Positions 45,198 to 61,290 of a stretch of DNA of 64,000 bases are shown piece after piece (within the stretch, counting starts at the first letter, position 1; each line of letters starts with the position of its first letter). Origin of the DNA: an uncultured Alphaproteobacteria bacterium (GTDB lineage: Bacteria; Pseudomonadota; Alphaproteobacteria; Rs-D84); NCBI GenBank assembly GCA_905233975.1, contig CAJOGD010000006.1, positions 26,864-90,863 of the forward strand, in the 5' to 3' direction. Below the pieces are notes generated by a model. It ran no database searches. It saw nothing but the letters and a program-made list of their open reading frames with translations, and was not told the origin of the DNA. A program made the translations under genes and the position numbers.

Positions 45198-45220
45198 TGT
45201 GCGAAGGGGAATAAAAACTA

Positions 45221-45436
45221 CCGCGGTGAAAACCAAGCGGCCGGGGTGTTAGCAAATCATAACAGCGTTGATCCCAATGGCTTTCGGCGAACCTATTGTA
45301 TTACCATCGGCACCCCGAACCATATCGTTCGGGGGGATTTAACGATGCAAAAGCAAGGAAATCACAATGGATAACGATGCTATGCACCGGCTGTTATGGG
45401 CCTGCTAGAGCCCCGAACCAAGTTCCCACTTAGTTC
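45221..45436 (-). ncRNA. Structured leader RNA, copy L1 (upstream of 43591-45096)
   Basis: 216 nt in transcript sense, beginning GAACTAAGTGGGAACTTGG and ending CCGCTTGGTTTTCACCGCGG. Predicted helices: P1 GGTTCGGGG/CCCCGGCC, P2 TAGCA/TGCTA, P3 CATAACAGC/GCTGTTATG, an internal hairpin CGGTGCA/TGCATCG, hairpin P4 CCCCGAAC/GTTCGGGG, and P5 GATGG/CCATT. P3 has a different but fully complementary sequence in copies L2 and L3. No ORF of note inside. A promoter lies directly upstream. Confidence 0.75.
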
Positions 45437-45443
45437 AATGAAA

Positions 45444-45473
45444 ATCATAACACAATTTATTAAAACACGTCAA
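45444..45473 (-). promoter_or_regulatory. Promoter of leader RNA L1
   Basis: Minus-strand TTGACG, 18-nt spacer, TATGAT; start expected just before the conserved GAACTAAGTGGG. Confidence 0.65.
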
Positions 45474-45523
45474 GCAATAAATGTCTTTACACCGCGCGAA
45501 TAAATTTTTATAATCCGATTGCT

Positions 45524-47320
45524 ATGAAAAAAATTATTAATTCTATTAAAAAATTTATTAACGGCGATCCCAAAAATGGACGCATTAAATGGTCACTCTA
45601 TGTTCGCATTTGGCGCGAAATCGGCGTTCCGCAATTAAAGTGGATTATCGCCGGTGTTATCGCAACGATTGGCGCCGCCGCGGCCGAAGGTTATACGATT
45701 ACGCTTGTTCAACGCGTTGTCGATCAGGCCTTTATTGAAAAAAATATGGATTCAACATATATTGTCGGGTTGCTTATTATCGCCGCCTTTGGTGCCAAGG
45801 GCGCGTTTCGTTATGCGCAAACTTTGTTGATGTCCAAGGCGGGCTTGAATGCCAGTGCGATGTTGCAAAAGCGTATTTACAATCACATGGTGCGCATGGA
45901 CATTTCCGGATTCTTTGGCGAAGGAATCGGGAAACACCTTAACTATTTCTGGGTCCAGGCGGGCGCGGTTTTGAATTTGGTAACCGGGACGGTGGTCAAG
46001 ATTGTTCAAGAAATCGCGACACTTGCCATTACACTTGGGCTTATGGTTTATTATGCACCACAAATGTGCGCGGTGCTGCTGTTCTTGGTGCCGGCGATTA
46101 TGTTGCCGATGGTGGCGATTATGCGGCGGCGGCGTAAGTTGTCGCGGCAATCTTTTGGCATCGCGAATGATGTGTCGCAACATTTGAATCAAACTTTGCG
46201 CGGGATTAAAACTATTCAATCCTTTGCCACCGAAGAGTCTGAGGCAAAACGTTTCGCAAATGTTCTGAATAATTCGATGATAAATTCGTATAAAAGCGCC
46301 CAGGCGAACGGTTTGCAATCGCCATTGTTAGAGGTTATGATTTCGATTGGCCTTTGTTTGGCGATGATTCTGGGCGGGCATTTTATCGTTAGTGGCGCGA
46401 TTACGACCGGTGATTTTACGGCGTTCCTGTTGGCACTGACCGCCGCGTACAAGCCGGCGAAGTCAATCACAAACACCGGCGATACGGTGCAACATGGATT
46501 GCTGGCCGCGGAAATTTTGTTCGATTTCTTGGATACCAAACCGACAATTCGCGACACGAAAAATGCAACCGTATTGCGTGCGGTGCGTCCGTCGATTGAA
46601 TTCAAGAACGTAAAATTTTCATATGTCCCAGAAGAGCCTGTGTTGCGTAATATCAACCTGCGCGTGCCGGCGGGCAAGGTTTGCGCCCTGGTCGGGCCAA
46701 GTGGCGGCGGCAAGACAACAATGTTTAATTTGATTGAACGATTCTATGATCCGAACGATGGTATCATCGCGATAAATGGAACGGACATTAAAAAGTACAC
46801 TCTGAATTCGTTGCGCAAAAATATTTCAGAGGTTTCACAAGACGTGTTCTTGTTCAATGATACTATCGAAGCAAACATTAAATACGGCGCGCCAAACGCA
46901 TCGCACGAAGCGGTTGTCGCGGCGGCGCGGGCGGCGAATGCGCACGATTTTATTACGGCGTTTCCACATGGGTATGAAACAAGCGTGGGCGAAGGTGGCG
47001 CGTTGCTGTCGGGCGGACAAAAGCAACGCATCGCGATTGCGCGTGCGATACTAAAAGATGCGCCGATACTGCTGCTGGACGAGGCGACATCCGCCCTGGA
47101 TACCAAGAGTGAGAAACTGATACAAGAAGCTTTGCGTGACCTGATGCGCGGGCGGACGACGTTTGTTATTGCGCACCGGCTTTCGACGATTTTTGATGCC
47201 GATATGATTTGCGTTATCAAGGACGGCGAAATTATCGAACAGGGAACCGACGAAGAATTGGTCAAACTTGGCGGCGAATATAAAAAACTGCGCGACATTC
47301 AGGTGAAGAGTAAGAAATAA
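45524..47320 (+). CDS. ABC exporter, MsbA/lipid-flippase-like
   Basis: 598 aa with fused membrane and nucleotide-binding domains. Six membrane segments in residues about 40-320; Walker A VGPSGGGKTTMF, signature LLSGGQKQRIAIARAIL, Walker B ILLLDEATSALD, H-loop IAHRLSTI. Closest in pattern to MsbA-type lipid A or multidrug exporters; substrate cannot be fixed. Start at the ATG 45524; no strong ribosome site. Confidence 0.88.
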   Translation: MKKIINSIKKFINGDPKNGRIKWSLYVRIWREIGVPQLKWIIAGVIATIGAAAAEGYTITLVQRVVDQAFIEKNMDSTYIVGLLIIAAFGAKGAFRYAQTLLMSKAGLNASAMLQKRIYNHMVRMDISGFFGEGIGKHLNYFWVQAGAVLNLVTGTVVKIVQEIATLAITLGLMVYYAPQMCAVLLFLVPAIMLPMVAIMRRRRKLSRQSFGIANDVSQHLNQTLRGIKTIQSFATEESEAKRFANVLNNSMINSYKSAQANGLQSPLLEVMISIGLCLAMILGGHFIVSGAITTGDFTAFLLALTAAYKPAKSITNTGDTVQHGLLAAEILFDFLDTKPTIRDTKNATVLRAVRPSIEFKNVKFSYVPEEPVLRNINLRVPAGKVCALVGPSGGGKTTMFNLIERFYDPNDGIIAINGTDIKKYTLNSLRKNISEVSQDVFLFNDTIEANIKYGAPNASHEAVVAAARAANAHDFITAFPHGYETSVGEGGALLSGGQKQRIAIARAILKDAPILLLDEATSALDTKSEKLIQEALRDLMRGRTTFVIAHRLSTIFDADMICVIKDGEIIEQGTDEELVKLGGEYKKLRDIQVKSKK

Positions 47321-47403
47321 TGGGAAGTTCCGACTTCGCCAAGGCTACGTTGGACATGGGTTAGTGAAAAGCCAGTTCGTCTTGTTTTCCCAGACCAAAA
47401 AAT

Positions 47404-47425
47404 AAAAACCGCAAATGCGGTTTTG
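47404..47425 (-). terminator. Terminator of tRNA-Lys
   Basis: AAAACCGC-ATTT-GCGGTTTT just past the CCA end on the minus strand; also faces the exporter gene. Confidence 0.8.
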
Positions 47426-47431
47426 ATTTTT

Positions 47432-47507
47432 TGGTGGGGCCACAGGGACTCGAACCCTGGACCCAATGATTAAAAGTCATTTGCTCTACCAACTGAGCTA
47501 TAGCCCC
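47432..47507 (-). tRNA. tRNA-Lys (UUU)
   Basis: Acceptor GGGGCTA / TGGCCCC with encoded CCA, D-arm GCTCAGTTGGTAGAGC, anticodon arm AATGA-CTTTTAA-TCATT, T-arm CAGGGTTCGAGTCCCTG. 76 nt. Confidence 0.96.
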
Positions 47508-47591
47508 AGAACTTTCTTTTCCAGCAGTTCGGCGGAGATTATGACACATTTTTTACAAAAAGCAAGAAAATTATGGTGCACGCCAAAAAAA

Positions 47592-48290
47592 TTATTCCGC
47601 CGGCGCGTCTTTTGGCGCCGCGCCCGCGGGTCCGGCAAGTTCCGCCTCGGCCAGTAATTGTTCGAACTTCATCGCGATTGCCGCCCCGGAATCCAGCCAA
47701 TCCACGACTTTTTCGATAGTGTTTTTGACGTGCCGCGCGATAATCCGCCGATTCCCGCGCAGGTGATGTTCATTTACCACGTGCGATATGTGCCGCCCCA
47801 GTTCCGTCAGCAACCGCAAATCGTCGGTCGAAAGCACGTTTTCGCGCCCGTATCGATAGATAATATTTTCCAATTCGCCGTAATACCCATGCAGCAACCC
47901 CATGCACTTGCCGTCCATGCGCAATTTTTTGATTATGTACGCCTCGCTTAAACTCTGCATCTTGTTTATGCCCATCAGTGTCGTGCGGCCGCGCAGCCCC
48001 AGCATTTTGCGCAACACCAAAACCACGTGCAGCACCAGTGTGTTTATTTTCTCGTCAACATTGACCGTCATGGTTTCTTGCAGCCGCCGCGATACGCGCG
48101 AATTCGTATAGTCGTAAAGCAAAAACACCAACGGTATCGCAAGCAAAGACGCCGATATATTCGTAATTAAATCTGCGACATTTGGGTCACTGACGTTGTC
48201 GAGTGATATAGTGAACAACAGAACGCCGCCCAAAATGGACGCGACATAAGGCAACGCACGCAACACAAAATCCCGGACTTTTTCCCACAT
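47592..48290 (-). CDS. Unknown inner-membrane protein with helical cytosolic domain
   Basis: 232 aa from ATG 48290, placed 7 nt after a TATAAT box. Two hydrophobic segments (about residues 10-27, LRALPYVASILGGVLLFT, and 42-60, ISASLLAIPLVFLLYD), then a ~150-residue helical region with many Arg/Leu and an Ala/Pro tail (GPAGAAPKDAPAE). Not recognised. Confidence 0.68.
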   Translation of the reverse strand: MWEKVRDFVLRALPYVASILGGVLLFTISLDNVSDPNVADLITNISASLLAIPLVFLLYDYTNSRVSRRLQETMTVNVDEKINTLVLHVVLVLRKMLGLRGRTTLMGINKMQSLSEAYIIKKLRMDGKCMGLLHGYYGELENIIYRYGRENVLSTDDLRLLTELGRHISHVVNEHHLRGNRRIIARHVKNTIEKVVDWLDSGAAIAMKFEQLLAEAELAGPAGAAPKDAPAE

Positions 48291-48297
48291 GCGACAT

Positions 48298-48326
48298 ATT
48301 ATACCGCCCCGCCCCACCGTTGTCAT
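48298..48326 (-). promoter_or_regulatory. Predicted leaderless promoter for 47592-48290
   Basis: Minus-strand ATGACA, 17-nt spacer, TATAAT, then 7 nt to the ATG. Confidence 0.6.
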
Positions 48327-48350
48327 TGTGAATGGATTCCGCAAAACCGC

Positions 48351-48443
48351 CGTCATACCGCGGAAACGCGGTATCTCCCCGGCGTTGCAGAGAATTAGAC
48401 CGCGACAAGCCCGACAAGATTCCGCCTTTCGGCGGAATGACGG
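48351..48443. repeat. Dispersed palindromic repeat R2
   Basis: CGTCATACCGCG-GAAA-CGCGGTATCTC, GTTGCAGAG, then GATTCCGCC-TTTC-GGCGGAATGACGG: the uninterrupted form of the R1 layout. Confidence 0.75.
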
Positions 48444-48533
48444 GACTCTGTTTTCCCTTTCCCACTTGAAAATTCGTCAAATTTGCACTATAATAATATA
48501 GTCTGGGGCGAGGTAGAACCAAAGGAGTCGGCA

Positions 48534-50864
48534 ATGGCGAGCATAGATGGTTTTTTAACAACTTATTTTAAACAGTTGCACTTTAATTCGATGTCGCCAG
48601 AGGTGCGCGCGCGTTGGGAAGAGTATATGAAACTTCCCGATTTAAACTGGTCTATGAAGGACTGGCGGCGCGAACTTATGCACGAAACCGCGCCAGACAG
48701 CGGCGAATACGTCAATTTTGATTTACCTAGTATCAAAGAAGGCGAAAATACGGCGCGTGTTGATGCAGGCCTTAAAGACCCCGGTTTAACGGACGATCAG
48801 ATTAAAGATTTATACAAATATATGAATGCGGCCGTCAGTGGAATGGCGGAAGATAAAAAAATCAATAATGCTGAATTCAAGACTGCGAAAGACTTTGTTA
48901 ATGACTTTTACGGTACTTTTGAAGTTGGCGAACCACCTGTTTCACATACGAATATATTCAATATTATTAAAGTTTCTTCGCCAACAAAAACTACATTGGA
49001 AGATATTATCAGACTGCCAAATGGCGCGTTGCACATTTTGAAAGCCCCTGTTGAAAGGGCGCTTGAACAAATATCTGGCGAAAAAAAATTAACTTTTGAT
49101 AAACTTATCGAAAAAATACAAAAAGGCGATTATGATAAAGACAGCGCGTTCAGAGAACAATTAATCAAATTGTTTGAAAACATAGAGAATTTCGCGCCAT
49201 ACAGCTGGTTAGATTATACGCCCGATGGTGGTGCGACCTATCCAAACAAGACAAATTTATATCAGTTTACAGGAACTTTACGCGACAGCCTGGTTGAAGG
49301 ATTGAAACCCGAACCGTCTGATGACGTAATAGAACGTTTTAAACGCGGTTATGGTAATGTTTTTGAACGTATCTATAAAAAACCAAAGGTCAAAGCACTT
49401 TTTGCAGAACATGACGACAATGGTATTATTGCCGCGTTAGATGCTGCGCGCAATGCTGTTAATTATGACGTTCCGGATCAACCGAATTATCTTTATCCCA
49501 AAACAGAAAAACATCTAAATGCCCCCCAACGTATAAAAAAGGCAATAGACGATTTTTATGAAAATAATCTTGAAAAATATTTTAACAATCTTGGAGGCGA
49601 CAGATTATTTAAGTCCAAACCTGCACGCGATATTGTAAAAGGAATCAACAAAGCAAAAATTAAACGTACTGGTGGTTTAGATGAAATATTAACCAATTCT
49701 GACAAAATTAAAAAGGAAATAGAACACGAATCCACAAGTACCGGGTCACATTTTGAATGGTTCCTTAAAGAAATGAAAGTTATCAAGGATGCCGATGACA
49801 AGGCTTTTGAGGCTTGTTTGCGTAATGGTGTATCTTTGCGTGGTGTTGTGCAAAGAGTGATTATGGACGCAGTTAGTGCCGGAAAAGTCGCAGAAGCAAA
49901 AACCGCGCTTGAAATTTTATCTGTTATGAAATATGAAAACACCACAAGTAAAACATTGGACGCAATAAAAGAAGATAAGGATTTATTCAAATATTTCTCT
50001 AATCTAGAGCTTGCAAAGAAGAACGAGGGCACCAAGTTTGTTGCAGAAGCCATGGATAAAACCATGCGCATTGGCGGTATCGCCATCGCAACAATGGCCA
50101 CTGTTGCCGTCAATACCGTTCGCAAATTGGGCAGCAAGATTCGCAAAGAAAACAAAGACCTCAACGCAGCACATAATGCCAAGAAAGCAGAAAACGAACG
50201 AGATAAAACAGAATTGCAAAATAAAATCGAGGATAACAGAAGAAACGAAGCTCAAAAACAACGAGAAAAAGAAGCTGTAATATCAAGGTACGGCGACGAG
50301 GATACAATTAACAATAAATTAAATGAAAAAAAGACTTATAAAGACCGTTTGACGTCTTATCTTAAAACAGAACTTGACAATATGGAAGCTTTTAAAAACA
50401 GGACTGGCGCCACAGATGATGAAGTCAATGCATATGACACATTTGTACAATGGTACGAGAAATACATGAATGATGGCACCGCTATACCAGATGCTGTTTA
50501 TGATGCTATGCCGGATACAATGAAAGTATATACAGATAAAATCAAAAGACTTTTACGCGCATATCCCGCTGTTAATGATCACTTGACCCAAGCCCAAGAA
50601 ACAAAGAAAATTTTTGATGAGGCTTCAAATGCATTGACTGTTGCCAGTGACGAATTAGCTGCAAATCAAAAAAAACTGGATAGTTGGGATACAGATCACA
50701 AAGATAAGTATGATGAACTTATTAAATATTGGAATGAGTTGGAATTTGGACGCGATATGCACCTTGGACGTGTCTTTGGCGGTATGTATAGCAGATTTGG
50801 CAACAAGAAAACCCAACAAGAAAAGTATTTCGCAAAGTTTAACAATGGAATACCGTCCAGATAA
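48534..50864 (+). CDS. Large unknown protein, 776 residues
   Basis: Starts at ATG 48534 with AAGGAG; preceding in-frame codons lack one. The N-terminal 500 residues are polar and mixed helix/loop without repeats I can recognise. Around residues 505-525 a hydrophobic segment (IGGIAIATMATVAVNTV) could be a membrane helix, followed by a strongly charged coiled coil (NAKKAENERDKTELQNKIED and onward) and another Lys/Glu-rich helix pair near the end (GMYSRFGNKKTQQEK). No signal peptide. AT-rich compared with ackA next to it. Followed by its own terminator. Function unknown. Confidence 0.72.
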   Translation: MASIDGFLTTYFKQLHFNSMSPEVRARWEEYMKLPDLNWSMKDWRRELMHETAPDSGEYVNFDLPSIKEGENTARVDAGLKDPGLTDDQIKDLYKYMNAAVSGMAEDKKINNAEFKTAKDFVNDFYGTFEVGEPPVSHTNIFNIIKVSSPTKTTLEDIIRLPNGALHILKAPVERALEQISGEKKLTFDKLIEKIQKGDYDKDSAFREQLIKLFENIENFAPYSWLDYTPDGGATYPNKTNLYQFTGTLRDSLVEGLKPEPSDDVIERFKRGYGNVFERIYKKPKVKALFAEHDDNGIIAALDAARNAVNYDVPDQPNYLYPKTEKHLNAPQRIKKAIDDFYENNLEKYFNNLGGDRLFKSKPARDIVKGINKAKIKRTGGLDEILTNSDKIKKEIEHESTSTGSHFEWFLKEMKVIKDADDKAFEACLRNGVSLRGVVQRVIMDAVSAGKVAEAKTALEILSVMKYENTTSKTLDAIKEDKDLFKYFSNLELAKKNEGTKFVAEAMDKTMRIGGIAIATMATVAVNTVRKLGSKIRKENKDLNAAHNAKKAENERDKTELQNKIEDNRRNEAQKQREKEAVISRYGDEDTINNKLNEKKTYKDRLTSYLKTELDNMEAFKNRTGATDDEVNAYDTFVQWYEKYMNDGTAIPDAVYDAMPDTMKVYTDKIKRLLRAYPAVNDHLTQAQETKKIFDEASNALTVASDELAANQKKLDSWDTDHKDKYDELIKYWNELEFGRDMHLGRVFGGMYSRFGNKKTQQEKYFAKFNNGIPSR

Positions 50865-50870
50865 TCCCCC

Positions 50871-50893
50871 TGCCCCCGGCGGGGGCATTTTTT
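50871..50893 (+). terminator. Terminator after the 776-residue protein
   Basis: TGCCCCC-GGC-GGGGGCA followed by six T residues. Confidence 0.9.
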
Positions 50894-50964
50894 GTTGAAA
50901 TATAAAACACCTGGTGCTACACTTTCGCGCGTAATGCAATAAACATGAACCAAAAGGAACGAAT

Positions 50965-52206: not shown

Positions 52207-52245
52207 TAAATAGTGTAAGTGATTAGTGTTAGTGATTAGTGTTAG

Positions 52246-52356
52246 TGCGCGGGGCTTTTGTCCCGCGTTTTTCATTTTTCAAAAAAATGTTCTTGATTAA
52301 ATTCAATCAAATTTGTTAAAATAAAAACTGAACTGAGTGGGAACTTGGTTCGGGGT
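52246..52356 (+). repeat. Promoter-block inverted repeat, left copy
   Basis: About 110 bp comprising the hairpin GCGCGGGGCTTTTGTCCCGC, the TTGATT/TAAAAT promoter and the first bases of the leader RNA. By eye it differs at only about two or three positions from the reverse complement of 61264-61374. The hairpin with its T run also ends ackA transcription. Confidence 0.8.
52293..52322 (+). promoter_or_regulatory. Promoter of leader RNA L2
   Basis: TTGATT, 18-nt spacer, TAAAAT; the same promoter occurs inverted at 61298-61327. Confidence 0.7.
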
Positions 52357-52548
52357 CGTCGTAGGCCCACAGTAAAGGCGACAAAACTGTCGTATCCGCA
52401 CAGTGTGTGGCGCCTTGGGCGTCTTTTATTGTGCATACCCCGACTTTGGTCGGGGTGCTGTTGGATATAAAACAGGTTTACCGAAGTCCTGCAGGATCAT
52501 GCTTTACTGTGATTTACGAACACCCCGACCGCTTGGTTTCCACCGCGG
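52330..52548 (+). ncRNA. Structured leader RNA, copy L2 (upstream of 52604-53572)
   Basis: 219 nt. P1 GGTTCGGGG/CCCCGACC; P2 TCGTA/TACGA, a compensated change from TAGCA/TGCTA in L1 and L3; P3 CACAGTAAAG/CTTTACTGTG; P4 CCCCGAC/GTCGGGG. The internal 5' hairpin and P5 are weak in this copy. It ends 55 nt before the ATG, the closest of the three, with no repeat inserted between. Confidence 0.78.
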
Positions 52549-52603
52549 CATTTATTTTAGTGTAAGTGTTAGTGCAAGTGGTTAGTGAAAAAAGGGGAGG
52601 AAA

Positions 52604-53572
52604 ATGTTTTTGAAAAAGTTTTTATTGTTCGGGTTGATTGCGGCAGTGTTGCCGGCGTTCGCCGAAGAAGTGGCGGACCGGAAAACGGCAACGTCGCTTA
52701 AATACGTCACACACGAATTGGATACGCGTCAGAATAAATTCGGCGCGGACACTAACAAAGCCATGGAATATACAAATTCGGCCGGAACGGTGCAAAAACG
52801 TGCGGTCACATCGGAACTGGGGTCCAGCACGTCCGACACATCACTGCCCATGGTTGGAGGTGTGAACACGAAACTTGATTTGAAACAGGACGATATTGAC
52901 CCCGTAAACGACCACACCGCCGTCACATATACTGGAACGGCCGGCGGTATCGGGCGGAAAGGAATTTATCAAACAACCGGCACATACACCGATCAAAGCG
53001 ACAACCTTATCGACGCAAAAACATTTAATGCCGCATTAAAGAAAGGACTTGATATTGAATTCAAGTGCAAGGAAACCAAACCCGGCACAGACCTTTGTTG
53101 GGTTTATTCGATACATAATGAAACCGAAGAAAAAACAAAAAATTTATTAAACCCATCATTTATGGACAATTCAACATATGAAACGGTGACGGTAAACGGC
53201 GTAACGATTGATCGTGCAAAAATATTGCCAACGGAAAACGGGAAAACATATACATTATCCGCAACATTGATTGCCAATGATGGGGGGACATATTTTTACT
53301 ATCTGGCTGAGATTTTCCCAGATGGCACCTATAGCAGTCAATCCCAGCTTCCTTGCCACTACATGTGGACTAATTACACCAGCGCAAACACTAACACAAC
53401 CGTTGAAAAAACATGCACATTTACCACACACGATAATGCGACATATTTGGTGAATTTTGCTAATTCATCGTCTGTAGATTATCTAACATTAACAAATTAT
53501 CAAATGGAAGAAGGTGCGACCGCAACGCCATACGTTCCGTACGGCAACGTTTATATCCCGCAAAATCAATGA
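52604..53572 (+). CDS. Modular secreted protein B: constant N-terminal half, CBM-like C-terminal module
   Basis: 322 aa after GGGGAGGAAA. Signal peptide FLLFGLIAAVLPAFA, then the family constant region (ADRKTATSLKYVTHELDTRQ, SDTSLPMVGGVNTKL, DNLIDAKTFNAALKKGLD, PGTDLCWVYSIHN). The variable part (about 185-310) is a jelly-roll-like beta segment: NPSFMDNSTYETVTVNGVTI, LPTENGKTYTLSATL, YQMEEGATATPYVPYG, typical of carbohydrate-binding modules in phage tail and gut surface proteins. Ends YIPQNQ. Shorter than A and C because the LamG-like module is absent. Confidence 0.75.
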   Translation: MFLKKFLLFGLIAAVLPAFAEEVADRKTATSLKYVTHELDTRQNKFGADTNKAMEYTNSAGTVQKRAVTSELGSSTSDTSLPMVGGVNTKLDLKQDDIDPVNDHTAVTYTGTAGGIGRKGIYQTTGTYTDQSDNLIDAKTFNAALKKGLDIEFKCKETKPGTDLCWVYSIHNETEEKTKNLLNPSFMDNSTYETVTVNGVTIDRAKILPTENGKTYTLSATLIANDGGTYFYYLAEIFPDGTYSSQSQLPCHYMWTNYTSANTNTTVEKTCTFTTHDNATYLVNFANSSSVDYLTLTNYQMEEGATATPYVPYGNVYIPQNQ

Positions 53573-54742: not shown

Positions 54743-54834
54743 CAAAACGCGGAAAACATACCCGACTTTTGGCAAACATTCATATTTATACTGCGTGACC
54801 CATGTGCTAAATTTTTTGGCACAGGGGGGACGCG

Positions 54835-55137
54835 ATGTCATTAGAAATCGAATATCAAAAATTGCCGAATGGTGATGGATTTTGTGCAAAATATAACGGC
54901 AACAAAATCGGCGAAATAGACATTGTCTATGTTGGTGCAAATCGTTTAATCATTGAATCTACGCACATCGACAGCGCGTTTGAAAACACCGAAGTATGTC
55001 GGAACCTGGTGCGGTGTGTTGCGAATTTCGCGCGACACGAACACAGGAAAATTTTATCACTGTGTCCGCGTGCGCAATCTATATTCAACCGGTATGCGGA
55101 ATTTGACGATGTCAGACTTATGAAATTCGCCGCATGA
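54835..55137 (+). CDS. Small GNAT-fold acetyltransferase-like protein (YidJ/COG2388 type)
   Basis: 100 aa. Matches the short GNAT family in pattern: a first beta hairpin (YNGNKIGEIDIVYV), IIESTHIDSAFENTEVCRNL where an acetyl-CoA loop is expected, and ARHEHRKILSLCPRAQSIFN followed by RYAEFDDV at the end. The usual G.GxA acetyl-CoA motif is not preserved (NTEVCRNLV), so activity is uncertain. Own start after GGGGG. Confidence 0.68.
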   Translation: MSLEIEYQKLPNGDGFCAKYNGNKIGEIDIVYVGANRLIIESTHIDSAFENTEVCRNLVRCVANFARHEHRKILSLCPRAQSIFNRYAEFDDVRLMKFAA

Positions 55138-55140
55138 AGG

Positions 55141-55731
55141 TTATTCCACATTCAAATTATCGACGACGAATTTCCAATCGATTAAATATTCAAGGAAATT
55201 TTCAACAAATTCTGCGCGCCGATTTTGATAGTCCAAATAATACGCGTGTTCCCACAAATCCAAAACCAGCACAGGTTTCAATCCATGTGCAATCGGTGTG
55301 TCCGCATTTTTCGTCGCGATAATTTCGAATTTATTATCGGGCCGCGCAACAATCCAAACCCAACCAGAACCAAAGACATCGTTCGCAACCGATTTAAATT
55401 GTTCTTTGAATTCGGCCACGCCGCCAAACGCGTCCGATATTAAATCAGGAATAAAATTATTGCCGCGCCCAAGGCAATTGAAAAAGAATTCATGATTAAA
55501 AATTTGCGCCGCGTTGTTGAAAATTTTTGTCGCCGATGAATCTTTGGCGGATTCCAAAATAATTTCGCGCAAATCCATATCGGCATACTTTGTCCCGGCG
55601 ATGAGTTTATTCAGGTTCGCGATATACGCGCCCATGTGTTTGTCGTGATGCGTGCGCACCGTTTCAACGGACATGTATGGCACAAGGTCTGTTTCGCGAA
55701 ATGGTAATGGATATTCGTTAAGGTTGAACAT
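55141..55731 (-). CDS. sodB: Superoxide dismutase, Fe/Mn type
   Basis: 196 aa from ATG 55731 with AAAGGAG. Metal ligands in THHDKHMGAY, IFNHEFFFNCL and LDLWEHAYYLDY. Converts superoxide to H2O2 and O2 in the cytosol. FNHEFFFN with Asn/Phe pattern resembles the Fe type. Convergent with the GNAT gene, 3 nt apart. Confidence 0.95.
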   Translation of the reverse strand: MFNLNEYPLPFRETDLVPYMSVETVRTHHDKHMGAYIANLNKLIAGTKYADMDLREIILESAKDSSATKIFNNAAQIFNHEFFFNCLGRGNNFIPDLISDAFGGVAEFKEQFKSVANDVFGSGWVWIVARPDNKFEIIATKNADTPIAHGLKPVLVLDLWEHAYYLDYQNRRAEFVENFLEYLIDWKFVVDNLNVE

Positions 55732-55815
55732 TTTTATCTCCTTTTTTTTCTTATTCTGACAAAAATGTGCGAAGGCGGCCACAGGAAAAATAGTTTATTT
55801 TTAATCAAAAATGAC

Positions 55816-55845
55816 TTGCACTGGGCGCATGGATATTTCTATAAT
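55816..55845 (+). promoter_or_regulatory. Promoter of the thioredoxin-fold gene
   Basis: TTGCAC, 18-nt spacer, TATAAT; followed by AAAGGAG before the ATG at 55873. Confidence 0.6.
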
Positions 55846-55872
55846 CATCATACAAAGTAAAAAGGAGAAAAG

Positions 55873-56349
55873 ATGAAAAAGTCAATTTTGTTTGGTGCGG
55901 TTTTGGGTGCGATGTTTATTGGTAATGCGATGGCCGCGGATATAACAATTTACTATTCGCCGACGTGTCCACATTGTCATCATGCGCGCGAATTTATTTC
56001 ACAAAATCTTGTTTACGAATATCCGAACCTGAACGTGACGACGGTCAATGTAATGGAATCGGCGAATCGTGATGAATTTATAGCGACACTTAAAAAGTGC
56101 GAATATAAATCGGGTGGCGTGCCGGTTATGGTTGTTGGCGAAAAATGTTTCCAGGGCTATGGCGCATCCATGGGCGACGATATTCGCGCGGCCATAGAGG
56201 TTGACATGAACGCCGACGCCAAGGCGGTTGCCGCCGAAAATAAAAAGGCGATGGAATCAGATGCCGATGCTTTCCGCAATGCGAACGCGGGCCGCGCATC
56301 CGCAATCGTTGAACGCGTTGTTGAAAAATCAGACGTAAAAAAAAACTAA
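55873..56349 (+). CDS. Periplasmic thioredoxin/glutaredoxin-fold protein, CPHC active site
   Basis: 158 aa. Signal peptide (FGAVLGAMFIGNAMA), then ITIYYSPTCPHCHHAREFIS with a CPHC redox motif and GGVPVMVVGEKCFQGYGA (the cis-Pro loop). A Lys/Ala/Glu-rich C-terminal helix follows. The stop comes right after a run of nine A residues (56337-56345). A -1 shift there would continue for 30 more codons to 56438, adding ENWFYYGILAILVVGLVAVL and a final RKKK: a membrane anchor. It may oxidise or reduce envelope proteins. Confidence 0.78.
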   Translation: MKKSILFGAVLGAMFIGNAMAADITIYYSPTCPHCHHAREFISQNLVYEYPNLNVTTVNVMESANRDEFIATLKKCEYKSGGVPVMVVGEKCFQGYGASMGDDIRAAIEVDMNADAKAVAAENKKAMESDADAFRNANAGRASAIVERVVEKSDVKKN

Positions 56350-56438
56350 CAACGGTAAATGAAAACTGGTTCTATTACGGAATTTTGGCGATTTTAGTGG
56401 TGGGATTGGTTGCCGTTTTATTGCGCAAGAAAAAATAA
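56346..56438 (+). other. Out-of-frame membrane-anchor extension of the thioredoxin-fold gene
   Basis: In the -1 frame relative to the stop at 56347-56349, codons read LTTVNENWFYYGILAILVVG and onward to LLRKKK, then TAA. Not an independent gene: no start. The poly-A tract at 56337-56345 is the natural place for slippage, an indel or a sequencing error. Confidence 0.55.
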
Positions 56439-56453
56439 AAAGCGAGATGACAC

Positions 56454-57191
56454 ATGTTTAATTTGACCGGACTTGATTACGCATACATTGGAATACTGCT
56501 TGCCTCTACGGTGTGGGCGACGATACGCGGCGGCATTTATGAAACCATCGCAACGTTGTCTTGGGTTGTGGCGGCGATAACCGCGCGGTTCGTGTCACCG
56601 ATGTTGGACAAATTACTCCAAGGCTGGTTTGGCCTGCCCGAATCAACCGTCGGAACGTTGGTCGCATCGTATTTCATTGTGTTCTTTGTCATACTGTTAA
56701 TTGTCGGGTTCTTTAACCAAAAACTGCGCGACCGCATTCAGGCAAGCATAATGAGTGTGACGGATCATACACTGGGCGTGATATTCGGAATCGTTCGCGG
56801 TATTGTCGTTATGGGCGTTTTCTATTGGGTTGCGCTGTGGTATTTTTCTGATGCACCGCGTGTGCCGGCATGGATGGTTGATTCGCGGACGCGTCCGTTA
56901 ATGCAGATGACGGCATTAAAGTTGGACGAATGGTTTATCCCCGGTCAGACAAGCAAACTGTTACTGCGTGATATCGAAGGTTCGCGTGAGGCGCAAAAGA
57001 TATATGAAAACCTGATTAATCCGCGCGTGGTTGATGATTCAACCAAGGGTGCGTCCAATGAATCCGCCGCCCCGGAAGAAACAGGCTATAAAAATTCTGA
57101 ACGTGGCGCGTTGGAAAATCAACTGTTGCAAATTGAAAATGTGGCAAACGCGGTTGAAAAACGCGAACGCGAAAATCAAGATAACAAGTAA
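56454..57191 (+). CDS. cvpA: CvpA family inner-membrane protein
   Basis: 245 aa. Four membrane helices in the first 150 residues (GLDYAYIGILLASTVWATIR, VASYFIVFFVILLIVGFF, VRGIVVMGVFYWVALWYF) with RGGIYETIATLSWV, the family signature. The C-terminal 90 residues are polar and helical, longer than E. coli CvpA. Linked in E. coli to colicin V export and envelope stress tolerance. Confidence 0.85.
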   Translation: MFNLTGLDYAYIGILLASTVWATIRGGIYETIATLSWVVAAITARFVSPMLDKLLQGWFGLPESTVGTLVASYFIVFFVILLIVGFFNQKLRDRIQASIMSVTDHTLGVIFGIVRGIVVMGVFYWVALWYFSDAPRVPAWMVDSRTRPLMQMTALKLDEWFIPGQTSKLLLRDIEGSREAQKIYENLINPRVVDDSTKGASNESAAPEETGYKNSERGALENQLLQIENVANAVEKRERENQDNK

Positions 57192-57319
57192 GACTCTGCA
57201 TATTTGTCCGCCTACGCTTTGCTACGGCGAGCCCCTGCCCTTAAAATGATAATTATTTTACCAGCGTGATTTGTCTATGATTTTATACAGCGCGCCGCAA
57301 AAAATAAAGCAAAAAAATA

Positions 57320-57347
57320 TTGACATTTGTATTTTTTGTATTATAAT
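57320..57347 (+). promoter_or_regulatory. Promoter of 57375-58133
   Basis: TTGACA, 16-nt spacer, TATAAT; AAAGGAG follows ahead of the ATG. Confidence 0.7.
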
Positions 57348-57374
57348 GAAAATATTATTCAAAGGAGTTCATAT

Positions 57375-58133
57375 ATGATAAAAGGGGGCCAACCTTTTAC
57401 AGAGAAACAACTTTTCCAATCCGTTGATGAATTGGCGTCGGTTGACATTAGCCCATATATATCAAATCCATTGATGCGCAGTATTGACAGAGGAAAAAAT
57501 TCTTTTGATTTACGTAAAATATCCCCGACACAATATTGTGAACGTATTCAAAAGGAACACGATGCTATCCCGTCAAGCGCACGCGAACTGGACAGACAAC
57601 TGGCCGCCAAGGGTTTCGACACACCCTATAAATTTTCATATGACTATAACATGTCCCAACAAATGCGTGACCGAATTGTCAAAGATGGATGGATCCTAAC
57701 ATATTTCCAAGACGTATTTAATCATCCAGATTTGCCAAGAAATGAAGTGGTACATAATAAACAATTTGAACAAAACATATTAAATGCATTGCGTGTCACA
57801 TATATGTATGCAGCATGTATTTTGCAATATAACCCTGGCATTTATGATTTCACAAATCTTCTTGAGAACCCCTTCAAAGGGTGGTACCATGTTCTGAATT
57901 TTGTAATTGGTGCCGGATACGGATTTCATCCTTTGGATATAAAATTTCATGAAAAAGTTTTTATCAATAATTACTACTGTGATCAAAAAGAATGCGAAAA
58001 CCAACGCACATTTAAAAATCGGTGTAAAGAACAGTATGATATTGACGCAGGTTGTCTGATTTTATCACCTGAAAATATGGAAAAACTAAGAAACATATTA
58101 ACCCGTCAAAACACACCAAAAATTGAAAGATAA
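57375..58133 (+). CDS. Unknown 252-residue protein
   Basis: Start from ATG 57375 with AAAGGAGTTC. Low-GC, Tyr/Asn/Phe-rich, no signal peptide. Three Cys late in the protein (YYCDQKECENQRTFKNRCKE) might bind a metal. No family recognised. Flanked by a strong promoter and a terminator, so it is a single-gene unit; base composition unlike cvpA suggests acquisition. Confidence 0.65.
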   Translation: MIKGGQPFTEKQLFQSVDELASVDISPYISNPLMRSIDRGKNSFDLRKISPTQYCERIQKEHDAIPSSARELDRQLAAKGFDTPYKFSYDYNMSQQMRDRIVKDGWILTYFQDVFNHPDLPRNEVVHNKQFEQNILNALRVTYMYAACILQYNPGIYDFTNLLENPFKGWYHVLNFVIGAGYGFHPLDIKFHEKVFINNYYCDQKECENQRTFKNRCKEQYDIDAGCLILSPENMEKLRNILTRQNTPKIER

Positions 58134-58151
58134 TATAAAATATTAACATTT

Positions 58152-58172
58152 TGCCCTTCGGGGCATTTCTTT
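58152..58172 (+). terminator. Terminator after 57375-58133
   Basis: TGCCC-TTCG-GGGCA followed by TTTCTTT. Confidence 0.75.
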
Positions 58173-58231
58173 ATCATTATCATATTTTTACGATTTTTTA
58201 CAATTTTACGAATTTTAATTCATAACAAAAG

Positions 58232-58255
58232 AAAAACCGCACAAGTGCGGTTTTT
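58232..58255 (-). terminator. Terminator of tRNA-Thr
   Basis: AAAAACCGCAC-AA-GTGCGGTTTTT, 15 nt past the CCA end. Confidence 0.85.
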
Positions 58256-58269
58256 GCTAACAAAATTTG

Positions 58270-58345
58270 TGGTGCCGGTTATCGGACTTGAACCAATGAC
58301 CTACTGATTACAAATCAGCCGCTCTACCAACTGAGCTAAACCGGC
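58270..58345 (-). tRNA. tRNA-Thr (UGU)
   Basis: Acceptor GCCGGTT / AACCGGC with encoded CCA, D-arm GCTCAGTTGGTAGAGC, anticodon arm CTGAT-TTGTAA-TCAG (anticodon TGT), T-arm TTGGTTCAAGTCCGA. Confidence 0.96.
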
Positions 58346-58405
58346 AATGCCCCATAATTATACATATTGCGGGACATAAAGCAAGAAAAAATTTCAAAAT
58401 AAATC

Positions 58406-58433
58406 TTGCAAATGGCGGGCGGCGGGCTAGTAT
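58406..58433 (+). promoter_or_regulatory. Predicted leaderless promoter for the U32 gene
   Basis: TTGCAA, 16-nt spacer, TAGTAT, then 7 nt to the ATG at 58441. Confidence 0.5.
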
Positions 58434-58440
58434 TATACTC

Positions 58441-59685
58441 ATGATAAAACTACCTGAACTTTTGGCGCCGGCGGGGACGCTGGACGCATTTAAAACCGCG
58501 ATTTTATACGGTGCTGACGCGATTTATGCCGGGCTGCCGGGGTTTTCGATGCGCGCGCGTGCCAAGATTACAACGGACGAGGTTAAAACCGGTATCGAAC
58601 TTGCGCACGCCGCCGGGAAAAGGGTTTATTTGGCGTTCAACCTGTTTGCGCATGATAATGAGTATGCAAATATGCCGCGCGTTTCCGAAATCATTCGGTA
58701 TCTGGCGCCGGACGCGCTTATTGTATCCGACCCCGGGGTTTTGATGTGGGTGCGCGAACACCACCCGGACATTCCGATTCACATTTCGACCCAAACGAAC
58801 ATTTGTTCCGCCGCGTCGGTAAAGTTTTGGCAGGCCGCAGGCGCATCGCTTTGCGTCCTTGCGCGTGAGGTTTCACATCGGGAATTTATTTCCATTCGGC
58901 GCGCATGCCCCGATATAAAACTTGAAATTTTTGTGCATGGTGCGATGTGCATGTCGTATTCGGGACGGTGCTTGCTGTCGAACTTTATTACGGGCCGGCC
59001 GGCGAATCGCGGTGCGTGCGCGCAACTGTGCCGGTGGAAATACGATGTGATTTTGCGCGAATGCGAAACCGGTATTGAAATGCCGATTACCGAAGACGAA
59101 CGTGGCGCGTATATTATGAATTCCAAAGATTTGTGTTTGATGCCGCGCCTGCGCGAAGTGATTGAATCCGCGCCGGATTCGTTAAAAATCGAAGGCCGCA
59201 ACCGCAGTGAATATTACGTGGGCAGTGTTGTTCACGCGTATCGTGCGGCGTTGGACGACTATGCGCGCGATCCGGAAAATTTTGATTCGGCAAAATATAT
59301 GGAAATGCTAAACGTATTGGAATCGCGCGGATATACGACGGCGTTCTTTGATGGGCCGGTGCCACCGGACGCGCATAATTATGATTCCGCGCGGTCGGCG
59401 TCCGAATATCATGCGGCGGGCGTAGTTGTGGCGCATGGCGATTCGGAAATCACACTGGAACTGCGCAATGAAATTAGGGCCGGCGATGAAATAACCTTTG
59501 TTATTCCGCACGAAACGCGCGGTGTGCGGGTGCAGATAAAACAAATCATAAACGCGGCAAATAATTCCATTTTACCGAAACTGTCGGCGGGTCAAAATAA
59601 TGCGATAAAGATTCCGCGCGAATGGATCGGCGCCGGCGATTTTGATAAATTGGCGCCATTTGTCTTGGCGTATAAACACAAATAA
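58441..59685 (+). CDS. Peptidase U32 family protein, TrhP-like tRNA hydroxylation factor
   Basis: 414 aa. PELLAPAGTLDAFKTAILYG at the start, then VHGAMCMSYSGRCLLSNFIT and RGACAQLCRWKYDV, the iron-sulfur Cys cluster of the TrhP (YegQ) group, which helps hydroxylate U34 of tRNA; it is not a true protease. LKIEGRNRSEYYVG and VLESRGYTTAFF are further family markers. The C-terminal domain is intact. No partner U32 gene nearby. Confidence 0.88.
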   Translation: MIKLPELLAPAGTLDAFKTAILYGADAIYAGLPGFSMRARAKITTDEVKTGIELAHAAGKRVYLAFNLFAHDNEYANMPRVSEIIRYLAPDALIVSDPGVLMWVREHHPDIPIHISTQTNICSAASVKFWQAAGASLCVLAREVSHREFISIRRACPDIKLEIFVHGAMCMSYSGRCLLSNFITGRPANRGACAQLCRWKYDVILRECETGIEMPITEDERGAYIMNSKDLCLMPRLREVIESAPDSLKIEGRNRSEYYVGSVVHAYRAALDDYARDPENFDSAKYMEMLNVLESRGYTTAFFDGPVPPDAHNYDSARSASEYHAAGVVVAHGDSEITLELRNEIRAGDEITFVIPHETRGVRVQIKQIINAANNSILPKLSAGQNNAIKIPREWIGAGDFDKLAPFVLAYKHK

Positions 59686-59710
59686 TTCGTTTTTTTACCG
59701 CAGTATGGCG

Positions 59711-60877
59711 TTATTGATTCTGGGGAATATAGAGATTGTTATTGGTTGCCTCTGGGCCGGCGGCAAAGTTTGTGTTGGCCGGAACACTGGGGAAGAATCG
59801 GCCGGATACCGTATCATACATGCCGACTTTGTTATCGCTGTCTTGACGCGCGGGGATAAAGTTTTGAATCAAATCGCCGTTGGCGTCCCAAACCCTATAT
59901 GAATAATATTTTGATTTTGCATTACTGGTCGGAGTTGTGCCAGCCGGATTGGCGGTTCCCAAAAACAGGTTATAATTAAACACGAATGATGAGTCATGTC
60001 CCTCTGAACGGCCTTTATCAACACCGTCAAAATATACTTCCCCATCAACTATGCGTAATATATGACGATTGGCATCTACTCGTGCCAAGGTCAAAAAACG
60101 ATTGCCATTTGCAGGGGCTTCCCAGCGGATGCCCCACTTTGTGGAGTCTATCCATGTAAAGCTCATATTTTGCCCTTGCCAATCGGACTGATTAAATACA
60201 CCCCAATTTCGGTAATAGCTAGCATCGGATTGTTGGAAATCTAGTTCATATGTATAGTTCATATGGCCCTTGATGCCCGTATCAATCCATTGATGTCCGT
60301 CGGATTCAATGTATTCCAACGGCGTATATCCCGGGGGCAAAAGTGTGTTATCCGTCGTTGGATTATGTATCGAATAAACCCAGCAAAGGTCTGTGTCGGG
60401 TTTAAATTCCTTACATTTAAATTCGTTATCAAGGCCGTTCTTTAACGCCGCGTTAAATGTTTTTGCATCGATAAGGTTGTCGCTTTGGTCGGTGTATGTG
60501 CCGGTTGTTTGATAAATTCCTTTCCGCCCTATTCCACCCGGTTGACCTGTATATGTGACGGCGGTGTGGTCGTTGATTGCGGCGATGTCATCCTGTTTCA
60601 TGTTCAGTTTCACATTCACACCACCAACCATTGGTAATGATGTGTCGGACGTATCGCTACCCAAATCAGATTTGACCGCGCGTTTTTGAACATCGCCGGC
60701 CGAATCGGTATATTCCATGGCTTTGTTTTGTTCCGCGGTAAATTTATCCTGACGCGTATCCAATTCATGTTCGACGTATTTCAACGACGTTGCCGTCTTG
60801 CGGTCCGCGGCCTCTTCCGCCACCGCCGGCAACACCGCCGCAATCAACCCGAACAATAAAAACTTTTTCAAATACAT
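59711..60877 (-). CDS. Modular secreted protein C: constant N-terminal half, LamG-like C-terminal module
   Basis: 388 aa. Signal peptide FLLFGLIAAVLPAVA and the constant region (ADRKTATSLKYVEHELDTRQ, SDTSLPMVGGVNVKL, DNLIDAKTFNAALKNGLD). The variable part is a LamG/concanavalin-like domain (YIESDGHQWIDTGIKG, YNLFLGTANPAGTTPTSNAK, YYSYRVWDANGDLIQNFIPA, VGMYDTVSGRFFPSV), ending YIPQNQ. DNA of the first ~150 codons closely resembles that of 52604-53572 in inverted orientation, whereas the C-terminal module is more like protein A. Mixed ancestry of the two halves implies domain exchange. Confidence 0.75.
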   Translation of the reverse strand: MYLKKFLLFGLIAAVLPAVAEEAADRKTATSLKYVEHELDTRQDKFTAEQNKAMEYTDSAGDVQKRAVKSDLGSDTSDTSLPMVGGVNVKLNMKQDDIAAINDHTAVTYTGQPGGIGRKGIYQTTGTYTDQSDNLIDAKTFNAALKNGLDNEFKCKEFKPDTDLCWVYSIHNPTTDNTLLPPGYTPLEYIESDGHQWIDTGIKGHMNYTYELDFQQSDASYYRNWGVFNQSDWQGQNMSFTWIDSTKWGIRWEAPANGNRFLTLARVDANRHILRIVDGEVYFDGVDKGRSEGHDSSFVFNYNLFLGTANPAGTTPTSNAKSKYYSYRVWDANGDLIQNFIPARQDSDNKVGMYDTVSGRFFPSVPANTNFAAGPEATNNNLYIPQNQ

Positions 60878-60900
60878 TTTCCTCCCCTTTTCCTTTTTCT

Positions 60901-61032
60901 CGTCATCCCGGCGAAAGCCGGGACCTCCTCAGGCTTTCCGCGGATTTGGTCCGCGATGGTTCCGACGGGATTCCGCTTGGAATCACCCAACGCTGCGCGT
61001 TTTTCGCGGGACCCGATACCGCGGAATGACGG
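60901..61032. repeat. Composite palindromic repeat R3 in the 5' UTR of secreted protein C
   Basis: CGTCATCCCGGCGAAAGCCG at one end and GCGGAATGACGG at the other, with GATTCCGCTTGGAATC inside. The mini palindrome ATCACCCA...GGGACCCGAT occupies 60982-61017. It lies between the leader RNA and the ATG. Confidence 0.7.
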
Positions 61033-61052
61033 CACTTACACTAAAACAAACA

Positions 61053-61290
61053 CCGCGGTGGAAACCAAGCGGTCGGGGTGTTAGCAAATCAGTGTTCTAT
61101 TGATCCCATTGGGCTTTGGTTTGATCCTGTTGTATATCCCAACGGCACCCCGACCATACGTCAGGGATTGTCATTTTTATGACGGTGCGAAACATGGAAA
61201 CCATCGTGAATGAAACACGTCCGGATTACGATGCAACGCACCGAGAACACTGGGCCTGCTAGAGCCCCGAACCAAGTTCCCACTTAGTTC
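61053..61290 (-). ncRNA. Structured leader RNA, copy L3 (upstream of 59711-60877)
   Basis: 238 nt in transcript sense. P1 GGTTCGGGG/CCCCGACC, P2 TAGCA/TGCTA, P3 CAGTGTTCT/AGAACACTG, internal hairpin CGGTGCG/CGCACCG, P4 CCCTGAC/GTCGGGG, P5 TTGGG/CCCAA. The whole 5' block from promoter to GGTTCGGGG is almost identical to L2, while the inner part is unlike L2 and nearer to L1. Confidence 0.77.

What the first reader, a model, noticed from the sequence alone, without database searches (positions are those of the whole stretch)
45221..61290. A three-copy structured leader RNA with complementary sequence changes
The three secreted-protein genes are each preceded by a ~216-238 nt element (45221-45436 minus, 52330-52548 plus, 61053-61290 minus) with the same 5' end (GTGGGAACTTGGTTCGGGG) and 3' end (CCGCTTGGTT.TCACCGCGG). 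Helix P3 is CATAACAGC/GCTGTTATG in L1, CACAGTAAAG/CTTTACTGTG in L2 and CAGTGTTCT/AGAACACTG in L3: different sequences, all fully complementary. P2 changes from TAGCA/TGCTA to TCGTA/TACGA in L2. P4 and an internal hairpin also keep pairing while changing. Such covariation is strong evidence for a conserved RNA fold, and I know no family with this pattern. Size and complexity suit a regulatory leader or a stand-alone RNA rather than a simple attenuator.
Basis: partly seen in the sequence, partly recalled or inferred. Interest (0 to 1): 0.93.

Follow-up and report, generated by a model that had tools for sequence, protein, structure and literature searches.

The report
Self-silencing barcoded leader RNAs
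In a small-genome relative of gut Alphaproteobacteria about 36 copies of a folded leader RNA, each with a nearly unique pairing 'barcode', sit almost always ahead of variable secreted-protein genes; its second half is predicted to fold like a known small RNA (sRNA-Xcc1) often found ahead of phage control genes, and likely lets each copy switch off only its own gene.

Summary
The three elements belong to a ~220-nt leader RNA with 38 copies in this 1.04-Mb genome (36 strong), found in 84 of 96 genus, 125 of 142 order and 41 of 385 class genomes searched. Copies have a promoter-like sequence and a terminator-like 3' hairpin; here 32 of 33 testable copies precede one paralogous secreted-protein family. 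Intermediates link the families. In sRNA-Xcc1 loci elsewhere the missing 5' half is present too, and the hairpin segment also matches the start region of the downstream gene, often a phage antirepressor-type gene (9 of 20); on two Ti plasmids it is traM. I conclude: a C4-like self-antisense leader, likely of phage origin, expanded here into a barcoded surface-gene regulon. Structure and homology are firm; release of the 3' RNA and action in trans are inferred.

The parts
45444..45473 (-). sigma70-like promoter of copy L1 (TTGACG, 18 nt, TATGAT)
   Evidence: sequence; promoter-like in 35 of 36 genome copies
45206..45438 (-). leader RNA copy L1 (model match incl. terminator T-run)
   Evidence: R1 202.1 bits, R2 178.9 bits
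45415..45436 (-). L1 5' hairpin H1
45390..45398 (-). L1 P3 barcode, 5' strand
45258..45266 (-). L1 P3' strand = loop of alternative hairpin P8
45243..45320 (-). L1 3' domain with sRNA-Xcc1-like fold (c ... P6 ... P8 ... d)
   Evidence: folds alone as c-d stem + P6 + P8
45210..45240 (-). L1 terminator-like hairpin and T-run
43591..45096 (-). secreted paralog gene downstream of L1 (501 aa)
52293..52322 (+). promoter of copy L2 (TTGATT, 18 nt, TAAAAT)
   Evidence: sequence
52328..52563 (+). leader RNA copy L2
   Evidence: R1 174, R2 147.5 bits
52330..52351 (+). L2 5' hairpin H1
52368..52377 (+). L2 P3 barcode, 5' strand
52502..52511 (+). L2 P3' strand
52448..52526 (+). L2 3' domain with sRNA-Xcc1-like closing stem c-d
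52529..52560 (+). L2 terminator-like hairpin and T-run
52604..53572 (+). secreted paralog gene downstream of L2 (322 aa)
61298..61327 (-). promoter of copy L3 (TTGATT, 18 nt, TAAAAT)
   Evidence: sequence
61038..61292 (-). leader RNA copy L3
   Evidence: R1 211.8, R2 188.1 bits
61269..61290 (-). L3 5' hairpin H1
61244..61252 (-). L3 P3 barcode, 5' strand
61090..61098 (-). L3 P3' strand
61075..61155 (-). L3 3' domain with sRNA-Xcc1-like fold
61041..61072 (-). L3 terminator-like hairpin and T-run
59711..60877 (-). secreted paralog gene downstream of L3 (388 aa)

Best explanation
The three elements are copies of a ~220-nt leader RNA whose 3' half is predicted to fold like the known small RNA sRNA-Xcc1 and is complementary, copy by copy, to its own 5' half; it is predicted to be released as a small antisense RNA that likely makes new transcripts of the same gene end at the predicted terminator. 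Shown here: promoter-like and terminator-like signals, the leader position, two mutually exclusive covarying folds, locus-specific complementarity, homology to sRNA-Xcc1 through intermediates. Inferred: in fold I the 5' half pairs with its own 3' half (P1, P2, P3); P1 brings hairpin H1 beside the terminator hairpin T, and H1 is complementary to T, so P1 would extend into an anti-terminator and allow read-through. In fold II the 3' half is closed by the c-d stem and shows the barcode strand (P3') in the loop of hairpin P8. A fold-II RNA left from an earlier round would pair with the P2-P3 segment of a new transcript, keep it out of fold I, let T form and stop transcription before the secreted-protein gene. 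Because P3 is nearly unique to each copy, this silencing would act on the own locus only.
For: Fold I: 95.5% of cells paired on 83 rows, covariation 0.675 vs 0.187 in shuffles and at most 0.081 when slid. Fold II (a-e, c-d, P8), not in the model used for the alignment: 95.7% paired, covariation 0.342 vs 0.167 shuffled, 0 of 500 shuffles, 0.026-0.109 when slid. The window copies' 3' halves fold alone with the c-d stem, in L1 and L3 with P6 and P8 as in sRNA-Xcc1. H1-T complementarity is locus-specific: -15.57 vs -12.66 kcal/mol (sd 0.23, best of 5000 permutations -13.45; 114 H1/T pairs of relatives). Barcodes: 35 of 36 distinct as aligned, cognate -10.3 vs non-cognate -1.6 kcal/mol, 26 of 1260 cross pairs within 2 kcal/mol of cognate; P3 identity 0.41 vs 0.61-0.74 for H1, P2, P4, P6. 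sRNA-Xcc1 loci elsewhere: the P8 segment pairs with its own upstream DNA at -29.3 vs -21.0 for swapped loci (permutation minimum -24.07; 29 loci) and matches its own downstream 80 nt (6.59 vs 5.02, sd 0.19, maximum of 5000 = 5.86); a mostly Alphaproteobacterial set does so with the P2'-d strand (5.76 vs 5.01, maximum 5.62; 34 of 41 loci). sRNA-Xcc1 was found as an 88-nt RNA with mapped ends (PMC2996969, passages). Promoter-like in 35 of 36, T-run in 35 of 36 genome copies.
Against: No transcript data for this clade. Full-length RNAs prefer fold I over fold II by 9.6-17.5 kcal/mol in a nested model, so fold II needs a separated 3' RNA or a blocked 5' half. The fold-II pairs were picked by mutual information on the same alignment on which they were then counted; the Rfam structure is the independent support. 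The window clade has no barcode copy at its start regions (own 5.45 vs 5.41; relatives 4.93 vs 4.83), so the part of the mechanism best supported elsewhere is missing here. Barcodes are not all unique: L115 and L146 are identical and L137 and L149 share ten bases. Extreme P3 divergence can also be drift under a pairing constraint. Permutation tests treat related loci as independent. My energy test of the anti-terminator state was inconclusive.
Confidence: 0.5

Rival explanations
1. A purely cis-acting attenuator or riboswitch: a metabolite, ion, protein or temperature shifts the same molecule between fold I (read-through) and fold II (termination); the barcode is just a freely drifting stem.
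For: Leader position, terminator-like hairpin, two exclusive folds; conserved unpaired stretches, e.g. UCGUAAUCC in P4; in the window clade no barcode at the start region.
Against: c-di-GMP is unlikely as signal: GGDEF in 0 of 39 genus genomes, control rings in 8 of 14. The downstream genes of relatives share no evident pathway. Locus-specific matches to the downstream region in sRNA-Xcc1 loci and a free 88-nt RNA in Xanthomonas (PMC2996969) point to antisense action. Fold I is far more stable than II in cis.
Confidence: 0.3
2. A stand-alone trans-acting sRNA family: the terminated ~220-nt RNA acts on other mRNAs and the downstream genes are read only by leakage.
For: Own promoter-like and terminator-like signals; sRNA-Xcc1 is called a trans-acting sRNA in the title of Chen 2011, seen only as a reference.
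Against: A same-strand gene follows within 260 nt in 136 of 154 copies; in relatives the start codon lies a median 16 nt after the model end (90 copies; 75 within 30 nt). Complementarity is to the own locus.
Confidence: 0.12
3. A mobile or DNA-level element (recombination site, inverted repeats) that travels with gene cassettes.
For: Multi-copy; similar DNA on plasmids (366 records) and in 4 phage records over the 3' half; in Xanthomonas integron cassettes (PMC12444791, passages); strong inverted repeats.
Against: Near-constant position between promoter and start codon, compensatory changes in nested helices, T-runs; copies differ rather than being recent identical transposons.
Confidence: 0.05

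Closest known systems
Rfam RF02221 sRNA-Xcc1 (Xanthomonas campestris, 88 nt)
   Same: Same 3'-half fold: c-d closing stem, P6, P8 hairpin; L325 and L312 score above the gathering threshold over this half; also upstream of the gene (symE in Xanthomonas, PMC12444791, passages).
   Different: Window copies do not match RF02221. The 5' half (H1, a, P2, P3, P4, b) is not in the Rfam model; here the 3' end is a terminator-like hairpin with H1-complementary sequence; ~36 strong copies in one genome on secreted-protein genes.
C4 antisense RNA of phages P1/P7 (RF01695; c4-2 RF02944)
   Same: Works-like: antisense RNA encoded in the operon of the gene it silences, pairing through loops (PMC8198154 and PMC12197685, passages); relatives of our RNA lie ahead of antirepressor genes in phages Aaphi23 and Rac-SA53.
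   Different: No match to C4 models at our elements (c4-2 matches a separate site in L325); larger RNA, different fold; the window clade shows termination signals rather than a start-region target.
Phage P4 CI RNA with seqA/seqB/seqC (recalled, no call)
   Same: One loop complementary to an upstream and a downstream site of the same transcript, as in the sRNA-Xcc1 loci.
   Different: Recalled resemblance only; no sequence or fold comparison made.
Riboswitch / attenuator leaders such as GEMM (recalled)
   Same: Many copies upstream of surface genes, terminator-like 3' end.
   Different: No Rfam match; no ligand known; GGDEF absent in the 39 genus genomes searched.

Membership tests
RF02221 sRNA-Xcc1 | Score at or above the gathering threshold (53 bits) | tested here: not met
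   Window copies: no match; G000 0 matches. Met by relatives L325 and L312.
RF02221 sRNA-Xcc1 | Closing stem + P6 + second hairpin fold | tested here: met
   Covaries on A8; window 3' halves L1 and L3 fold so alone, L2 with the closing stem and a different inner pairing.
RF02221 sRNA-Xcc1 | Separate ~88-nt transcript | not testable with these tools
   Known for Xanthomonas campestris (PMC2996969, passages); no RNA data for this clade.
C4 antisense RNA | Match to RF01695 / RF02944 | tested here: not met
C4 antisense RNA | Loop complementary to the own leader | tested here: met
   P3/P3'; sRNA-Xcc1 loci.
C4 antisense RNA | Loop complementary to the start region of the regulated gene | tested here: not met
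   Not met in the window clade (33 own and 120 relative copies); met on average in sRNA-Xcc1 loci of other genomes (same call, 29 loci).
Riboswitch | Ligand binding by the leader | not testable with these tools
   No ligand assay; c-di-GMP made unlikely.
Intrinsic-terminator attenuator | GC hairpin plus T-run and a competing pairing of it | tested here: met
   T-run in 35 of 36 own and 125 of 133 relative copies; H1-T complementarity. Termination itself untested.

The most novel reading that the evidence does not exclude
A phage-type self-antisense leader was domesticated in gut Alphaproteobacteria and multiplied into a genome-wide set of some 36 mutually orthogonal, barcode-addressed RNA switches, each silencing only its own member of a variable surface-protein repertoire: an RNA counterpart of phase-variable contingency genes. 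The same RNA class controls phage antirepressors and the Ti-plasmid quorum-sensing antiactivator traM.
Probability: 0.35. Interest if true: 0.95.

Novelty: new variant of a known kind. Interest (0 to 1): 0.85.

Why it matters
It shows that an orphan small RNA (sRNA-Xcc1) is, in most loci tested here, the 3' half of a larger leader RNA class, gives it a testable target (its own leader and start region), and ties together phage antirepressors, Ti-plasmid traM, integron symE cassettes and a large surface-protein regulon. If the barcodes work as proposed, a 1-Mb genome holds dozens of independent, addressable RNA switches, which would be new for bacterial gene control.

Tried and rejected
c-di-GMP (GEMM-like) control: made unlikely, GGDEF in 0 of 39 genus genomes. 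Rfam families for the window copies: none at gathering threshold; for copy L2 with permissive settings only SgrS at 8.7 bits, chance. T-box (a CCGCGG resemblance at the 3' end, recalled): dropped, the relatives' terminator hairpins read differently. Short uORF in the leader: dropped on reading. Start-region barcode copy in the window clade: tested, absent. Energy comparison of anti-terminator against H1+T states: inconclusive, because the constraint only removed H1.

Rows dropped or kept. Antisense matches of the models (L091, L116; L098, L096, L201, L109, L221) look like palindromic echoes. The two, five weak matches and the two weak own copies (L117, L142) were dropped before (second part); some searches were made before that exclusion. 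The five echoes were dropped but remain in the tool counts. Three weak rows dropped remain. In one search, 30 of 178 copies could not be parsed and were left out, 4 more, and some of its 10 non-pairing cases are parser errors. In one search one of 30 loci (L363) was skipped for lack of upstream DNA. In one search, 7 of 41 loci were left out (3 no d motif found, 4 no gene found). One search shows 24 of the 32 loci L296-L327. In one search, 5 of 29 loci gave no gene; 20 of the 24 found were scanned with Pfam. In the sRNA-Xcc1 loci a simple promoter pattern was found in only 12 of 29.

Literature: in the listings of searches and in the passages opened I saw no description of a 5' half of sRNA-Xcc1, of its antirepressor or traM context, or of this RNA in gut Alphaproteobacteria. 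Of the 18 papers that hold the name (15 listed) I opened passages of five. Most subscription papers are not held; Chen 2011 was not held and not read.
Full report
WHAT IS THERE. The three elements lie at 45221-45436 (-), 52330-52548 (+) and 61053-61290 (-) with the stated ends, helices and changes and fold better than all 200 shuffles each (z -4.66, -6.59, -5.46). Rfam finds only tRNAs in the window at gathering thresholds.

HOW MANY. A covariance model (R1) from 25 copies finds 38 copies in the window's genome G000 (1,038,472 bases), 36 of them at 150 bits or more, the others at 91.2 and 42.5. With R1: 84 of 96 genomes of the genus, 125 of 142 of the order, 12 of 190 of the class, three of these being G000 and its genus. 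With R2, built from 40 diverse copies: 41 of 385 of the class, four of them G000 and its genus, and 14 of 299 of the phylum, four of them outside the class, two of those weak. Per-genome counts in these wide searches are lower bounds, since only the best candidates were scored. R1 matches 106 of the 110 (some cut by an end) and 2 of 5 viral-contig hits.

WHERE. Genes were called by a crude longest-ORF script. Of 154 copies with more than 400 nt downstream, 136 have a same-strand gene within 260 nt, 10 an opposite gene, 8 neither. In relatives the start codon follows the model end by a median of 16 nt (90 copies). A TTGACA/TATAAT-like promoter ends just before the RNA in 35 of 36 own copies (24% of shuffles) and 116 of 126 relatives (33%); a T-run follows the last hairpin in 35 of 36 and 125 of 133. 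In G000, 31 copies by script plus L124, which the script mis-picked, lead one paralogous secreted family; one of the 33 copies with enough downstream sequence does not (L132), and three copies at contig ends could not be tested. The three window proteins have no Pfam family above its curated cut-off, share their N-terminus and end in YIPQNQ, with differing middles. In relatives 67 of 91 first genes look exported by a crude test, against 25 of 86 upstream ORFs. Pfam hits among 87 scanned, each family in one or two members only, include DNA methyltransferases, glycosyltransferases, outer-membrane barrels and PMP repeats.

FOLD I. On 106 rows (A6): 97.1% of 5182 cells paired, against 76.0% in shuffles and 34.6-55.3% when slid; covariation 0.584 vs 0.191. 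On 83 rows reaching further from the genus (A8, five of them antisense echoes): 95.5%, covariation 0.675 vs 0.187. R-scape was not available, the alignments were fitted to this structure, and shuffles do not remove relatedness.

FOLD II. The best covarying pairs outside the model are between the P5 3' strand (c) and the strand after P2 (d), within a local hairpin P8 whose loop is the P3' strand, and between a and e. Counted as a named structure: 95.7% paired, covariation 0.342 vs 0.167, 0 of 500 shuffles, 0.026-0.109 when slid. The pairs were chosen on the same alignment, so this count alone is not independent; the published Rfam structure shows the same c-d stem and second hairpin. One c-d pair alone is standard in 134 of 144 parsed copies. 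Distant copies change c and d together (read: L310, L313, L323, L325). P1, P2, P3, P5 and c-d, P8, a-e exclude each other.

LINK TO A KNOWN RNA. Among 20 loci scanned with permissive settings, RF02221 sRNA-Xcc1 matches L325 (69.9 bits) and L312 (56.2) above the gathering score of 53 and ten further loci below it, three of them at E below 0.01; in the alignments shown the match runs from c to d, the consensus closing stem is c-d and its second hairpin is P8. The window copies' 3' halves, folded alone, close with c-d; L1 and L3 also form P6 and P8, L2 pairs differently inside. Conversely RF02221 is found in 57 of 398 phylum genomes, 39 over the cut-off, none in G000. In 29 such loci (28 outside the class; one, L347, is the locus of L325) the P8 segment pairs with its own upstream DNA (-29.3 vs -21.0 kcal/mol for swapped loci, -20.5 for the downstream region; own is the best partner in 13 and within the best three in 22 of 29; one clear exception, L346, -13.9), and its complement recurs in the 80 nt downstream (mean longest match 6.59 vs 5.02, maximum of 5000 permutations 5.86; 7 or more in 15 of 29, against 8% of swapped pairs). 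Of 20 of these genes scanned, 9 match Bro-N, KilA-N, P22_AR_N or Rha (one Bro-N is below its curated cut-off). Named records: upstream of ant in phages Aaphi23 and Rac-SA53, of a KilA-N gene in Acinetobacter phage 4316, of traM on two Ti plasmids, of a helix-turn-helix gene on R. etli p42d; 366 plasmid records match a rhizobial copy. In Xanthomonas sRNA-Xcc1 is 88 nt with mapped ends (PMC2996969, passages) and sits upstream of symE in integron cassettes (PMC12444791, passages); one Xylella genome has seven homologues, five clustered (PMC12189769, passages).

MECHANISM. H1 is complementary to the terminator hairpin in a locus-specific way (114 relative pairs: -15.57 vs -12.66, sd 0.23, best permutation -13.45), so an extended P1 would oppose the terminator. 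The lowest-energy fold of L2 does this, that of L3 does but not with the longer 3' end, that of L1 does not. I therefore propose: fold I gives read-through; a separated fold-II 3' RNA captures the P2-P3 segment of a new transcript, blocks fold I and leaves T free. The free 88-nt RNA of Xanthomonas, the conservation of fold II although fold I is 9.6-17.5 kcal/mol better in cis, and the downstream matches elsewhere favour an antisense mechanism over a simple cis switch. Against it: no RNA data for this clade, no start-region barcode in the window clade.

BARCODES. Among the 36 strong copies P3 is the most divergent of the helices compared (identity 0.41; H1 0.73, P2 0.61, P4 0.74, P6 0.68); 35 of 36 5' strands differ as aligned, though L137 and L149 share ten bases; cognate pairing -10.3 vs -1.6 kcal/mol, and 26 of 1260 cross pairs come within 2 kcal/mol of cognate. 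This is what copy-specific silencing needs, but drift under a pairing constraint would look similar.

VERDICT. A real, widespread leader RNA class; window copies are a terminator-type, multi-copy branch of a superfamily of which Rfam holds one half. Not a member of RF02221 by its threshold, nor of C4; it is proposed to work like C4.

Noticed in passing
52246-52334 and 61286-61374: The ~89 nt upstream of copies L2 and L3 (a GC-rich hairpin plus the promoter) are identical but for one base, so the cassette seems to have been copied with its promoter.
   Followed up: no
43594-45096, 52604-53569, 59714-60877: Secreted paralogs with a shared N-terminus, a variable middle and a common end (YIPQNQ): a mosaic repertoire of 30-odd genes; at two of the genome's copies (C4:213159, C7:88937) the gene downstream looks split.
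   Followed up: partly
60890-61029, 52564-52588 and downstream of other copies: A short palindromic repeat (GTCATTCCGGCGAAAGCCGGAATCC type, or relatives of it) and runs of GTGTAAGTGTTAGTG lie between the terminator-like hairpin and the gene in several copies.
   Followed up: no
G000 C1:79710-79935 (L117): A weak, diverged copy (42.5 bits) lies 16 nt before a gene starting MKKIDLVYMWVDGND (looks like a Stealth-type sugar-phosphate transferase, recalled).
   Followed up: no
L331, L332 (Ti plasmids): The leader lies 26 nt before traM by the matched stretch; its P2'-d strand is complementary to the traM start region (7 and 8 bases), which suggests RNA control of the quorum-sensing antiactivator.
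   Followed up: partly
L312:1192-1402 (-) and L325:2909-2977 (-): L312 carries a second, oppositely oriented copy (31.9 bits); L325 has a c4-2 RNA match (34.8 bits, below its threshold) about 1.2 kb away, so both RNA types may occur in one phage-like region.
   Followed up: no
A6 columns 54 and 449: An isolated covarying pair (UA 60, CG 25, UG 12; 4 non-pairs) between the stretch after strand a and the base after P6: a possible tertiary contact.
   Followed up: no
L260, L264: Two viral contigs carry the RNA (R1 143.9 and 84.7 bits) ahead of secreted-protein-like genes.
   Followed up: no
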